Positions 2,413 through 63,454 of a stretch of 64,000 nucleotides of DNA are shown here, one piece after another. Origin of the DNA: Azonexus sp. (lineage in GTDB: Bacteria > Pseudomonadota > Gammaproteobacteria > Burkholderiales > Rhodocyclaceae); NCBI GenBank assembly GCA_017983615.1, contig JAGOBB010000003.1, forward strand, positions 62,001-126,000, in the 5' to 3' direction. The notes beneath the pieces are model-generated. The model made no database searches, had not been told where the DNA came from, and saw nothing but the letters and a program-made list of their open reading frames with translations. How positions within the stretch are numbered: position 1 is the stretch's first letter; each line of letters starts with the position of its first letter. The position numbers and the translations under genes were made by a program.

Positions 2413-2448
2413 AATGCTACGGTCGGCCCGAAAAAAGGCCAATTTTCG
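2413..2448 (+). repeat. Dispersed bipartite repeat, copy R1 (truA-trpF gap)
   Basis: The 12-base core AATGCTACGGTC at 2413-2424 is exact. A 15-base spacer holding a run of six A follows, then the tail CAATTTTCG. It lies 14 bases after the truA stop and 25 bases before the trpF start. See the findings for the full comparison of copies. Confidence 0.9.
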
Positions 2449-2473
2449 AAATGACCGCCAAGAGAGTGCGACC

Positions 2474-3100
2474 ATGAGAACCCGAATCAAGATTTGCGGC
2501 CTGACCCGCGAAGAGGATGTCGATGCCGCGGTGGCGGCCGGTGCCGATGCCCTGGGCTTTGTCTTCTATCCGCCCAGCCCGCGCTACGTGACACCTCAGC
2601 GGGCGGCCGAACTGGTCAGGCGGGTGCCGCCTCTTGTCGACGTCGTCGGTTTGTTCGTCAATGAGGTGCCGGAGGTTGTCCGTGCCGCCTGCGAAGCCCT
2701 GCCGATCAACGTCCTGCAGTTCCATGGCGATGAAGATGCCGGCTATTGCCGCCAGTTTTCAAGACCTTATCTGCGGGCGGCGCGGGTAAGGCCGGGCCTC
2801 GATCTGGTAGAATTCGCCGGCTCGTTTCCCGAAGCCCGGGGGCTGCTGCTGGATGCCTTCGTCGAAGGTTATGGTGGTGGTGGTCACGTCTTCGACTGGA
2901 CGCTGATTCCGCCGGACCTGCCGTCGTTTCTGGTGCTCTCCGGCGGACTGACCGCGGAAAATGTCGGTGATGCCGTGCGGCGCGTGCGCCCGGTGGCCGT
3001 CGATGTCTCTTCCGGGGTGGAAATGAGCAAGGGAATCAAGGATCACTCGAAAATCGCTGCCTTTGTGGCGGCCGTACGGAAAGCCGATGAGTCAATATAA
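2474..3100 (+). CDS. trpF: Phosphoribosylanthranilate isomerase TrpF
   Basis: 208 residues. It isomerises N-(5-phosphoribosyl)anthranilate to the carboxyphenylamino-deoxyribulose phosphate in tryptophan synthesis. The N-terminal [13 protein letters not shown] motif carries the catalytic Cys (residue 7). The mid-chain NVLQFHGDE strand and the C-terminal VDVSSGVE phosphate-binding motif are also present. The ATG at 2474 is used because the KICG motif must lie near the N-terminus. The 3' end overlaps trpB by 14 bases, so the two are probably translated together. It is the first of trpF-trpB-trpA; the earlier trp genes are not in the window. Confidence 0.97.
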
Positions 3101-4286
3101 CTTCCCCGACGCCAAGGGCCATTTTGGCCCCTACGGTGGCGTCTTCGTAGCCGAGACGCTGTTTGGCGCGCTCGATGAATTGAAGGCCGCCTACGCCGCT
3201 GCCCAGGCCGATCCGGCCTTCCGCGCCGAATACGAATACGAACTGAAGCATTTTGTCGGCCGCCCGTCGCCGATCTACCACGCCAAGCGCTGGTCCGAAA
3301 TGCTCGGCGGTGCCCAGATTTACCTGAAGCGCGAAGACCTGAACCACACCGGCGCCCACAAGGTGAACAACTGCATCGGCCAGGCCATGCTCGCCAAACG
3401 CATGGGCAAACCGCGCGTCATCGCCGAGACCGGCGCCGGCCAGCACGGCGTCGCCACCGCGACAGTCGCCGCCCGCTACGGCATGGAATGCGTGGTCTAC
3501 ATGGGCAGCGAGGACGTCCGTCGCCAGGCTGCCAACGTCTATCGCATGAAGCTGCTCGGCGCCACCGTCGTGCCGGTCGAATCCGGCTCGAAGACGCTGA
3601 AGGATGCGCTGAACGAAGCGATGCGCGACTGGGTGACCAACATCCACAACACCTTCTACATCATCGGCACCGTCGCCGGGCCGCATCCCTACCCGATGCT
3701 GGTCCGCGACTTCCAGAAGATCATCGGCGAGGAATGTCTTGAGCAGATGCCGGATATGGCCGGCCGCCAGCCCGATGCGGTGATTGCCGCGGTAGGTGGC
3801 GGTTCCAATGCAATGGGCATCTTCTACCCCTATATCAACGTCGAAGGCGTCCGCCTGATCGGTGTCGAGGCCGCTGGTTCGGGTATCGCAACCGGTCATC
3901 ACGCCGCTTCGCTGACCGCCGGCGTACCCGGCGTGCTGCACGGCAATCGCACCTACCTGCTGCAGGACGAGGACGGCCAGATCATCGAAACCCATTCGAT
4001 CTCGGCCGGCCTCGACTATCCGGGCGTCGGCCCCGAGCACGCCTGGCTGAAGGATCTCGGCCGTGCCGAGTACGTGCCGATCGACGACAGCGAAGCGCTG
4101 GCCGCCTTCCACAACCTGTGCCGCCTCGAAGGCATCATCCCGGCGCTCGAATCCAGCCACGCGCTGGCCTATGCCGCCAAGCTGGCGCCGACGCTGGCCA
4201 AGGACAAGATTCTGCTGGTCAACCTCTCCGGCCGGGGTGACAAGGACATGCACACCGTGGCCGAAAAATCCGGGATTGTCTTCTGA
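3087..4286 (+). CDS. trpB: Tryptophan synthase beta chain
   Basis: 399 residues. It condenses indole with L-serine using pyridoxal phosphate. The PLP lysine is Lys92 in HTGAHKVNN, and the phosphate-binding GGGSNAMG loop lies near residue 233. The C-terminal SGRGDKD motif is present. The ATG at 3087 lies inside the end of trpF. The stop overlaps the trpA start (TGATG). Length and motifs are those of the TrpB1 family that pairs with TrpA. Confidence 0.98.
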
Positions 4287-5092
4287 TGTCGCGTATCAAA
4301 TCCGCTTTTGAACGCCTCGATGGCGAAGGCCGCAAGGCGCTGATTCCCTTCATCACCGCCGGCGACCCGGACGCCGCGCTGACCTTGCCGCTGATGCACA
4401 CGCTGGTCGAGGCCGGGGCAGACGTTATCGAACTCGGTGTCCCGTTCTCCGATCCGATGGCCGATGGCCCGACCATCCAGCGCGCTTCCGAGCGGGCGCT
4501 GGCCAAGGGCATGACGCTGCGCAAGGTGCTGGCGTTGGTCGTCGAATTCCGCAAGACCGATAGCAAAACGCCAATCGTGCTGATGGGCTACGCCAACCCG
4601 ATCGAGGCGATGGGTCTGGAGAAATTCGCGGCCGCCGCCGCCCAGGCTGGCGTCGATGGCGTGCTGGTCGTCGATTATCCGCCGGAAGAAGCGGCCGCCT
4701 TCGGTGCCGCGATGAAGGCGCAGGGCTTGGACCCGATCTTCCTGATCGCGCCGACTTCCAGTGCCGAGCGCATCGCGCATGTGGCCGAAATTGCCAGCGG
4801 CTACGTCTATTACGTTTCACTGGCCGGGGTGACCGGGTCCGGTGCGCTGAACGTCGACGCCGTGGCCGAACGCCTGCCGCCCATTCGCGAAAAGACTGGC
4901 CTGCCGGTCGGCGTCGGATTCGGCATTCGCGATGCAGCGACCGCCGCCCGGATTGCATCCTTTGCCGACGCCGTCGTGGTCGGCAGCCGGATCATCGAAG
5001 AAATTGAAAAATCGACGGCAGAAACCGCCTGTGCCAACGTCAAGGCATTGGTCGCGGACATTCGCCGTGGCGTAGATGAGGTGAAAAAATGA
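4286..5092 (+). CDS. trpA: Tryptophan synthase alpha chain
   Basis: 268 residues. A TIM-barrel enzyme that releases indole from indole-3-glycerol phosphate and channels it to TrpB. The catalytic Glu49 ([11 protein letters not shown]) and Asp60 (MADGP) are visible, and the GFGIRD phosphate loop is near the C-terminus. It overlaps trpB by one base and accD by four, so trpB, trpA and accD are likely one transcript. Confidence 0.98.
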
Positions 5093-62153: not shown

Positions 62154-62465
62154 GGCGGTTCCTCGTTTGGTGGCATCGGGCGGCCAAAGCGTTGCTGGAG
62201 GGCACCAATTGTCTGCTGGTAATCTGCACGGTGGCGCCCAGGGGGGCATTTGCAATGCGATGCTCGGTCCGTAACGGCCCCCAAAATCAGATTGGCAAGC
62301 AATTGGCGAGAAAGACGGGGCATGCAATCCATTGAAGCCAATTTACATGGGTCAGTCCGCAAGATAGCGTGCTGAAACTGCCGTCTAGCGTGACCTATTT
62401 CCTGTGGACTGGGCAAGCAATATCTAATAATTGCGGGTATTGCTTTCCGCCAACGGGAGTTCGGT
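62154..62465. other. Gene-free stretch before the lytic transglycosylase gene
   Basis: 312 bases without a credible gene, more AT-rich toward the right end. It holds a decayed copy of the dispersed repeat (62259-62289) and must contain the divergent promoters of the flanking genes. No promoter matched well enough to call. Confidence 0.6.
62259..62289 (+). repeat. Dispersed bipartite repeat, decayed copy R14
   Basis: GATGCTCGGTC (the core with one base lost and a G for A), an 11-base spacer, then an intact tail CCAAAATCA. It is a likely degenerate copy, shortened by about five bases. Confidence 0.4.
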
Positions 62466-63314
62466 TTGTCGCGGTTCCTGCCCTTCATGTTGTTCTTTAT
62501 TGCCTCGATTGCCGGTACGCCGGCTAGCGCCGCTCAATTTGAGGAGGCACCGCGTGTGATTGCCGCGCTGGAGCAGGGGCGCGCAGCCGAAACCGGGGCC
62601 GGGGTCCGCAAGAATCTGATGCTCGCCGTGCGGCTCTATTGCGATGCTGCCGCGATGGGCGGGGCAGAAGCGTATTTGCGGATTGGCCGCTTGTTGAAAG
62701 CGGCGCCCGGGGGATTGCGTAAACCGGACATGGCCAATGCCTATTTCGCCATGGCTGCCACGCTCGGCAACGAAGAGGCGCTCAAGCACTACGACCCGCA
62801 GCATGGCAATGCCACGCTAGAGGGTGAGTGTCCGGCCGCATCGGAAATGCACTACGCTGATTCGGATTTCGATGTTGCCGCATACCTGAGCAAACAGCCG
62901 GCCAGCAAGCAACAGATTGCCAGCTTGATACGCAAGGTGGCCGTGAAACTCCAGATCAATGAGCACTTCGCGCTGGCCATCGCGATGGCGGAATCGAATT
63001 TCGATCCGAGGGCGGTTTCACCGAGCAATGCCCAAGGGGTGATGCAACTGATCCCGGCAACTCAGGAACGCTTCGGAGTGACCCGTCCCTTCGATCCTGA
63101 GCAGAACATCAAAGGAGCGCTGGCCTATATCCGCTGGCTGGAAAAGCGCTTCGCCGGCGACTGGCGCCTGGTGGCTGCGGCCTACAATGCTGGCGAGGGC
63201 GCGGTGGATCGTTACAACGGCATTCCACCTTATGCGGAAACCCAGCAGTATGTTCGCCGGGTCATGCGCTTTTTCGGCAGGCAGGCCAAGACCGACGTAG
63301 CACTGTCGATTTAG
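62466..63314 (+). CDS. Lytic transglycosylase with Sel1-like repeats
   Basis: 282 residues. A signal peptide (MSRFLPFMLFFIASIAGTPASA) is followed by a Sel1-like helical region (about 25-120; AVRLYCDAAAMGGAEAYLRIGRLL) and an SLT domain (about 150-270) with catalytic Glu in IAMAESNFDPRAVSPSNAQGVMQLIP and AYNAGEGAVDRY. It cleaves peptidoglycan glycan strands to make room for envelope machines. The start is a TTG at 62466 with GGGAG upstream; no better codon precedes the signal peptide. Confidence 0.9.
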   Translation: MSRFLPFMLFFIASIAGTPASAAQFEEAPRVIAALEQGRAAETGAGVRKNLMLAVRLYCDAAAMGGAEAYLRIGRLLKAAPGGLRKPDMANAYFAMAATLGNEEALKHYDPQHGNATLEGECPAASEMHYADSDFDVAAYLSKQPASKQQIASLIRKVAVKLQINEHFALAIAMAESNFDPRAVSPSNAQGVMQLIPATQERFGVTRPFDPEQNIKGALAYIRWLEKRFAGDWRLVAAAYNAGEGAVDRYNGIPPYAETQQYVRRVMRFFGRQAKTDVALSI

Positions 63315-63418
63315 GGCTGCTGTCCGCGCAAGGCCCGTTTTGACCGGCAAACACCATATTCTTGGTCTTCTCCCACCTGTTTGCCATCCCACATTATCTG
63401 TCGTCTCGGAATTTCCCG

Positions 63419-63454
63419 AATGCTACGGTCGGCCCGAAAAAAAGGCCAAAATCA
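63419..63454 (+). repeat. Dispersed bipartite repeat, copy R6 (next to DinB-like gene)
   Basis: Exact core AATGCTACGGTC, 15-base spacer with seven A, tail CCAAAATCA. It ends seven bases before the stop codon of the minus-strand DinB-like gene, opposite to its direction. Confidence 0.9.

What the first reader, a model, noticed from the sequence alone, without database searches (positions are those of the whole stretch)
2413..63454. A dispersed bipartite element: AATGCTACGGTC, 15 bases, then CCAAAATCG
The 12-base core occurs nine times exactly in 64 kb (2413, 11298, 20664, 28817, 33504, 45141, 63419 on plus; 51829 and 54555 on minus) and four more times with one to three mismatches (39282, 48996, 18462, 40531). 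One given 12-mer is expected about 0.008 times here on both strands by simple base counting. In 12 of these 13 copies a conserved 9-base tail (CCAAAATCG or CAATTTTCG types) begins exactly 15 bases after the core. Fixed spacing with a variable spacer points to a site recognised by a protein or nuclease, not a simple duplicated segment. Candidates are a DNA-uptake-type signal, a nucleoid or chromosome-organising site, or the footprint of a small mobile element. I do not recognise it as a named family.
Basis: seen in the sequence. Interest (0 to 1): 0.88.

Follow-up and report, generated by a model that had tools for sequence, protein, structure and literature searches.

The report
Azonexus DNA-uptake signal sequence (predicted)
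This bacterium's genome carries hundreds of copies of a short DNA tag that looks like the 'self' label some bacteria use to choose which free DNA to swallow, a labelling system so far reported in only two bacterial families, and this would be a third.

Summary
The 12-base core occurs 9 times exactly in the window and 451 times in the genome, against 0 for the reversed control. The '15-base variable spacer' is not variable. The element is about 39 bp: core AATGCTACGGTC, RRCCC, an A/T tract at +18 to +23 and another at +29 to +33. That is the layout of the Pasteurellaceae uptake signal sequence (USS). Other USS/DUS hallmarks are present: 81 perfect against 13 one-mismatch cores; origin by substitution at both coding sites that aligned cleanly; both strands, genes and intergenic DNA; spacing more even than random; species dialects. 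Two inserts into host genes hold no strict copy. Enrichment was seen only in one genus, Azonexus by its one close named relative. Most likely this is a DNA-uptake signal in a third family. Uptake was not shown and the receptor is not identified.

The parts
2413..2451 (+). copy: exact core + tract 1 (6/6 A/T) + tract 2 (5/5); the overlapping minus strand also matches the loose bipartite pattern
11298..11336 (+). copy: exact core + both tracts (6/6, 5/5)
18424..18462 (-). degenerate copy (2 mismatches in core), both tracts (6/6, 5/5)
20664..20702 (+). exact core inside a gene for a DUF6701 protein; tract 1 missing (1/6), tract 2 present (5/5)
28817..28855 (+). exact core inside a TPR-protein gene; tract 1 missing (0/6), tract 2 present (5/5)
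33504..33542 (+). exact core + both tracts (6/6, 5/5), at the upstream end of a recQ-type reading frame on the minus strand (31685-33541, start codon uncertain)
39244..39282 (-). degenerate copy (1 mismatch), tracts 6/6 and 4/5
45141..45179 (+). copy: exact core + both tracts (6/6, 5/5)
48996..49034 (+). degenerate copy (1 mismatch) + both tracts (6/6, 5/5)
51791..51829 (-). exact core + both tracts (6/6, 5/5) inside an AcrB/D/F-family transporter gene (50268-53312); the window's main test site for substitution versus insertion
54517..54555 (-). copy: exact core + both tracts (6/6, 5/5)
63419..63457 (+). copy: exact core + both tracts (6/6, 5/5)

Best explanation
The element is a genomic DNA-uptake signal sequence. 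INFERRED: in competent cells a surface receptor, most likely a minor type IV pilin, binds the strict core and the two A/T tracts on free double-stranded DNA; pilus retraction brings tagged DNA through the secretin, and ComEC passes one strand into the cytoplasm for recombination. SHOWN: the tags are abundant, nearly perfect in the core, on both strands, in coding and intergenic DNA, more evenly spaced than random, created by point substitution at two coding sites, and without a strict copy in two large inserts. INFERRED: tags pile up because tagged alleles are taken up and recombined more often (molecular drive), and species with shifted receptor specificity drift to other dialects.
For: (1) Abundance: 451 exact cores against 0 control. 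(2) Layout: core, then A/T tracts centred at about +20.5 and +31, 10.5 bp apart, information at background before -3 and beyond about +40; Pasteurellaceae USS have a core plus two AT-rich segments. (3) Strong consensus: 81 perfect, 13 one-mismatch, 20 two-mismatch cores; reversed control 0/0/34; [quoted passage not shown] (4) Substitution origin: the coding site at window 51829 aligns in 29 of 29 relatives fetched, 28 without a gap inside the 41-bp site; coding site L020:3904 aligns in 25 of 29 relatives fetched, 17 gap-free and 8 with compensating gaps of zero net length, core identity graded from 5 to 12 of 12. (5) Even spacing on contigs C1-C4: CV 0.67 against 0.95 simulated, P=0.0003; 1 interval under 1 kb against 12 expected, P=0.00005 (77 intervals). 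(6) Dialects by genome; G000, G029 and G075 are sisters in a one-gene tree. (7) Inserts in comEC of G002 and G073: 0 strict sites in 75.0 kb read against 27 in 236 kb of host stretches. (8) ComEC in one open frame in this genome; minor pilins present.
Against: No uptake or transformation was shown; paper searches listed nothing on competence in this genus (listings only). The receptor is not identified: the ComP_DUS-type pilin (PF16732) is in 70 of 76 genus genomes but also in 109 of 118 other family genomes, so it does not mark the system, and three genomes with few motifs (G048, G022, G044) have its highest scores. 33 of 76 genus genomes have fewer than 10 bipartite sites, yet 28 of these 33 still have a ComEC match over the cut-off, some of them split. 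comEC breakage does not track motif scarcity (5 of 10 split genomes against 28 of 66 others). Copy density (about 1 per 5 to 6.5 kb) is several-fold lower than about 1 per kb in Haemophilus. ComEA, PilQ and DprA were not searched. Depletion from recent foreign DNA would hold for any slowly gained motif, and with the loose pattern it is weak in G002 (2 against 5.9 expected, P 0.07) and clear only in G073 (1 against 8.4, P 0.002). Two further G000 sites (L020:6355 and 11393) and the window's intergenic sites gave gapped alignments that neither support nor refute substitution.
Confidence: 0.8

Rival explanations
1. A chromosome-organising or nucleoid site: an intracellular protein binds the 39-bp element across the chromosome (compaction, segregation or nucleoid occlusion).
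For: Dispersed and evenly spaced, intergenic-enriched, enriched in one genus only; A/T tracts one turn apart suit any bending protein.
Against: No strand polarity (runs tests on contigs C2 and C4, z -0.5 and +1.0) and no departure from uniform placement on three chromosomes of relatives (KS p 0.23 to 0.29). Binding sites of regulatory proteins typically have a more relaxed consensus (PMC1626085, passage) than 81 perfect to 13 near-perfect cores. Dialect changes inside one genus and near-absence in 33 of 76 genomes would be odd for a housekeeping chromosome protein.
Confidence: 0.12
2. A small mobile or copied element (MITE, REP or retro-type) whose body has shrunk to 39 bp.
For: Many perfect copies and a sharp consensus are also typical of recent copying. 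One intergenic alignment (window 48996 against G029) contains a 27-base gap next to the core.
Against: Two coding sites show substitution with no net insertion in 29 and 25 relatives (one relative, L077, has a 3-base gap in the first). Flanks show no shared sequence beyond about +40 and before -3. At L020:6355 seven relatives carry an other-dialect site at the same place.
Confidence: 0.03
3. A transcription signal, such as a terminator or promoter, over-represented near gene ends.
For: 42 of 84 exact sites are intergenic where 8.3% of positions are; 15 of 42 lie between convergent genes, which hold 19% of intergenic positions (rough gene calls).
Against: 34 of 84 lie inside genes on both strands (18 same, 16 opposite) and no second exact core lies within 300 bp to form a hairpin; Rfam finds no family in the window. 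USS/DUS themselves are often reused as terminators when paired.
Confidence: 0.04

Closest known systems
Uptake signal sequence (USS) of Pasteurellaceae, Hin type AAGTGCGGT and Apl type ACAAGCGGT
   Same: Strict core followed 3' by two A/T-rich segments about one helical turn apart; about 32 to 39 bp in all; more perfect than one-mismatch copies; arises by point substitution; dialects by clade. Some dialects of the genus (G034, G043, G032, G030, partly G071) contain GCGGTC, the end of the Apl 10-mer ACAAGCGGTC.
   Different: Different core and register: in G000 tract 1 starts 6 bases after the 12-base core and the tracts are 10.5 bp apart, against a segment just 3' of the core and centres 12 apart in Hin-type USS. 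The G000 core has ACGG, not the inner GCGG. Beta- not gammaproteobacterial; about 1 copy per 5 to 6.5 kb, not 1 per kb.
DNA uptake sequence (DUS) of Neisseriaceae
   Same: A betaproteobacterial uptake tag in many copies with species dialects sharing an inner core (passages).
   Different: DUS is a continuous motif of up to about 13 bases with no flanking A/T segments; the sequence is unrelated.
ComP/PF16732 and GspH/FimT-type minor pilins (receptor candidates)
   Same: Both kinds sit in the minor-pilin operon of G029. G000 has the ComP_DUS-type gene and, cut by a contig end, the GspH-type gene. ComP is the DUS receptor and PpdA/ComN is the predicted USS receptor (and abstract).
   Different: PF16732 is spread through motif-free relatives; binding of either pilin to this motif is untested. 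That PpdA belongs to the GspH class is recalled, from no call.

Membership tests
Uptake-sequence class (USS/DUS in the broad sense) | Hundreds or more copies, far above expectation | tested here: met
   451 against 0 control
Uptake-sequence class (USS/DUS in the broad sense) | More perfect than singly mismatched cores | tested here: met
   81 against 13 in 464 kb
Uptake-sequence class (USS/DUS in the broad sense) | Arises by point substitution, not insertion | tested here: met
   Two coding sites with 29 and 25 relatives; two other sites and the intergenic sites were uninformative
Uptake-sequence class (USS/DUS in the broad sense) | Both strands, coding and intergenic, spread over the chromosome | tested here: met
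Uptake-sequence class (USS/DUS in the broad sense) | Dialects that follow phylogeny | tested here: inconclusive
   G000, G029 and G075 share a dialect and are sisters, and the 14 motif-rich genomes in a one-gene tree of 30 form a clade (support 0.884) that also holds two motif-poor genomes; no whole-genome tree, and several dialect consensuses rest on 4 to 8 sites
Uptake-sequence class (USS/DUS in the broad sense) | Host has the type IV pilus and ComEC uptake machinery | tested here: inconclusive
   ComEC and, in G029, minor pilins with PilY1 found; ComEA, PilQ, PilT and DprA not searched
Uptake-sequence class (USS/DUS in the broad sense) | Motif-bearing DNA is preferentially taken up | not testable with these tools
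   Needs an experiment
Pasteurellaceae USS | Core AAGTGCGGT or ACAAGCGGT with inner GCGG | tested here: not met
   G000 core AATGCTACGGTC has ACGG; compared
Pasteurellaceae USS | Two A/T segments 3' of the core about a helical turn apart | tested here: met
   at a different register from the core
Neisseriaceae DUS | GCCGTCTGAA-type core, no flanking motifs | tested here: not met
   Core and two tracts differ; the DUS itself was not counted in this genome
Small mobile element | Copies are insertions into pre-existing sequence | tested here: not met
   Two coding sites

The most novel reading that the evidence does not exclude
The Azonexus and Pasteurellaceae uptake signals are branches of one ancient recognition system: a GspH/FimT/PpdA-class minor pilin that reads a (G/A)CGGTC core plus two A/T tracts. 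On this reading uptake self-recognition is older than the beta/gamma split, or was transferred, and other families should carry undetected dialects. Azonexus, with strong, weak and absent dialects inside one genus, would then be the place to watch uptake specificity being born, switched and lost.
Probability: 0.12. Interest if true: 0.92.

Novelty: new variant of a known kind. Interest (0 to 1): 0.8.

Why it matters
[quoted passage not shown] A third, in an environmental betaproteobacterial genus, would give an independent case for how receptors and genomic tags coevolve, and supply many dialects in one genus for finding the still-unproven USS-type receptor. It would also mean that gene exchange in this genus is filtered by a sequence tag.

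Tried and rejected
Mobile element: rejected on substitution evidence at two coding sites. Polar chromosome motif (Chi or KOPS-like): rejected, strands 228/223 and mixed along the two contigs tested. Known RNA family: none over the gathering score in the window. ComP_DUS pilin as a marker of the system: rejected, family-wide and unrelated to motif abundance. GspH-type pilin of G029 as a marker: hits in 63 of 76 genomes, 91% identical in G000, 25 to 63% elsewhere with many hits only over the N-terminal half (possible paralogues), not sorted by motif richness; motif-rich G075 has none. comEC loss as the cause of motif loss: no association. Hidden dialect in motif-poor G047 and G044: no USS-like word among the top ten over-represented 8-mers and 10-mers shown for 118 kb each. 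Wider spread: 368 other genomes of the class showed no clear excess over the reversed control (the largest, G623, 17 against 6, was not followed). The named-genome scan used a poorly conserved protein and returned only 5 loci, one close. Papers: exact-sequence, order and genus searches listed nothing relevant; the library lacks most subscription papers, so this is not proof of absence.
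Full report
WHAT WAS CHECKED. Genome-wide the 12-mer occurs 451 times, 228 and 223 on the two strands, against 0 for the pattern read backwards. In 464 kb of this genome (window plus the 20 stretches) it is the top-scoring 12-mer: 81 found, 0.05 expected under an order-3 Markov model.

ANATOMY. A profile of 81 exact copies shows, counting from the first base of the core as 0: A or G at -1, the core at 0-11, roughly R R C C C at 12-16, an A/T tract at 18-23, G G C C at 25-28, a second A/T tract at 29-33, C at 34 and AAA at 36-38. 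Information is near background before -3 and beyond about +40. The tract centres are 10.5 bp apart, one helical turn. In the tracts A and T substitute for each other, which suggests a shape signal rather than a base-paired RNA (inference). 73 of the 81 copies have at least 5 of 6 and 4 of 5 A/T in the tracts.

STRICT CORE. In the same 464 kb there are 81 perfect, 13 one-mismatch and 20 two-mismatch cores. The reversed control gives 0, 0 and 34; three shuffled cores give 0 perfect and 0, 4 and 1 one-mismatch matches. Redfield and colleagues (PMC1626085, passages) describe this excess of perfect over singly mismatched copies as a puzzling attribute shared by USS and DUS.

WHERE COPIES LIE. With a rough codon-usage gene caller of my own (it misses some atypical genes such as pilins, so intergenic counts are upper limits), 84 exact sites in 479 kb split into 42 intergenic, 34 coding and 8 straddling, although 8.3% of positions are intergenic. 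Coding copies sit on both strands: 18 same-strand, 16 of them in one frame, and 16 opposite, 11 of them in one frame. Copies on contigs C1-C4 are spaced more evenly than random (CV 0.67 against 0.95, P=0.0003; one interval of 77 under 1 kb against 12 expected, P=0.00005). Strands are mixed along contigs C2 and C4, and positions do not depart from uniform on three chromosomes of relatives (46, 34 and 23 sites, KS p 0.26, 0.29 and 0.23).

NOT AN INSERTION. The coding copy at 51829 lies in an AcrB/D/F-family gene. It aligns in 29 of 29 relatives fetched (loci L050-L078), 28 with no gap inside the 41-bp site and 26 with none for 30 bases either side. Relatives without the site differ by scattered substitutions; five (L052, L057, L063, L070, L072) read TGCTGCGGTCAAC, another dialect's core, at that place, though only L052 of these passes the bipartite pattern. 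A second coding site (L020:3904) aligns in 25 of 29 relatives fetched, 17 gap-free and 8 with compensating gaps of zero net length, with core identity running from 5 to 12 of 12. Two other sites in that region are uninformative: at 6355, 1 of 28 alignments is gap-free; at 11393, 0 of 5. At 6355 seven relatives (L137-L142, L144) carry a TGCTACGGTCAACCGG or CCACGGTCAACCGG type site in place. The intergenic copies at 48996 and 54555 align poorly, and at 48996 one relative (G029) has a 27-base gap beside the core.

WHO HAS IT. The exact core is found at 10 or more copies in 10 of 149 genomes, all in the same genus; of 73 genomes outside the genus 6 have one copy. A dialect-tolerant pattern (CGGTCR, tracts in register) gives 100 or more hits in 16 of 76 genus genomes, 10-99 in 27 and 0-9 in 33, with reversed controls of 0 to 5. 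Outside the genus, 241 genomes of the family have 0 to 4, and 368 further genomes of the class show no clear excess over control (largest G623, 17 against 6). The only close named relative is an Azonexus metagenome assembly (66% identity in the best segment, all 1187 query residues matched). Its flanks carry six loose matches to the pattern, five of them reading ACGGTC(A/G)ACCGGAAA. Azonexus belongs to Azonexaceae, Rhodocyclales; the genus name rests on that one record.

DIALECTS. Consensus sequences differ by genome: AATGCTACGGTCGGC in G000 (92 sites) and G029 (17); TGCTACGGTCAACCGG in G069 (29), with G053 (4) and G052 (8) alike; CCACGGTCAACCGG in G073 (30), G002 (27), G012 (6) and the named Azonexus (6); CTGCGGTCAACCGG in G043 (36); TGCTGCGGTCGACGG in G034 (23); TCACGGTCGAC in G065 (22). 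Because this search demanded CGGTC, that part is fixed by design. Unbiased k-mer counts find corresponding words in G000, G069, G065, G032 and G030 and in G043, G073, G002, G071 and, among other words, G034. In a one-gene tree of 30 genomes, all 14 motif-rich genomes present fall in one clade (support 0.884) that also holds motif-poor G035 and G064, and G000, G029 and G075 are sisters. G035's comEC is hit in two abutting pieces in different frames, which fits loss of transformation but was not examined further.

INSERTED DNA. In two motif-rich genomes comEC is split by inserts. In the 75.0 kb of insert read (all of G073's, all but 2 kb of G002's) there are 0 strict sites, against 27 in 236 kb of host stretches. 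A looser pattern gives 3, none in the host dialect, against 45; taken singly that is weak for G002 (2 against 5.9 expected, P 0.07) and clear for G073 (1 against 8.4, P 0.002).

MACHINERY. A ComEC match is found in 75 of 76 genus genomes, over the cut-off in 68, and this genome's copy is in one open frame of 867 codons. G029 has a minor-pilin operon with a ComP_DUS-type pilin, a GspH-type pilin, PilW and PilY1. G000 has the ComP_DUS-type gene and, cut by the contig end, the GspH-type gene. The ComP_DUS family is found in 109 of 118 family genomes outside the genus, so it is a general minor pilin here and not evidence of self-recognition.

VERDICT. The anatomy and population pattern fit a DNA-uptake signal better than the rivals considered. 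By sequence it is not a member of the Pasteurellaceae USS or Neisseriaceae DUS families, but it looks, as far as sequence can tell, as if it works like a USS. The introduction of PMC12616744 (read) says only those two families are known to do this. Other papers were seen as passages only (PMC1626085; PMC7811141; PMC3630211; PMC4774983). Uptake, receptor and competence remain untested.

Noticed in passing
Inserts in G044, G002 and G018 carry large serine recombinases next to the gene, and the G057 insert has a TniQ/TnsD-type protein next to it. comEC looks like a repeated target of mobile elements, as reported for competence genes elsewhere (PMC4774983, passages). Junctions were not aligned.
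   Followed up: partly
G065, G071, G039 and others (rows): Several genomes with 10-75 hits use a core with palindromic GGTCGACC, so some sites read in both directions with tracts on both sides; meaning unknown.
   Followed up: no
L121:2449-9218 and relatives: The minor-pilin operon looks very divergent between species of the genus (GspH-type pilin 91% identical between G000 and G029, best hits 25-63% elsewhere, some possibly paralogues); not tested for coevolution with dialect.
   Followed up: no
G623 (class scan): One genome outside the order has 17 bipartite hits against 6 in the control; may be chance or a distant dialect.
   Followed up: no
window 19710-23273: A 1187-residue DUF6701 protein carries a core without tract 1; the named-genome scan with it found only 5 related loci.
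   Followed up: no
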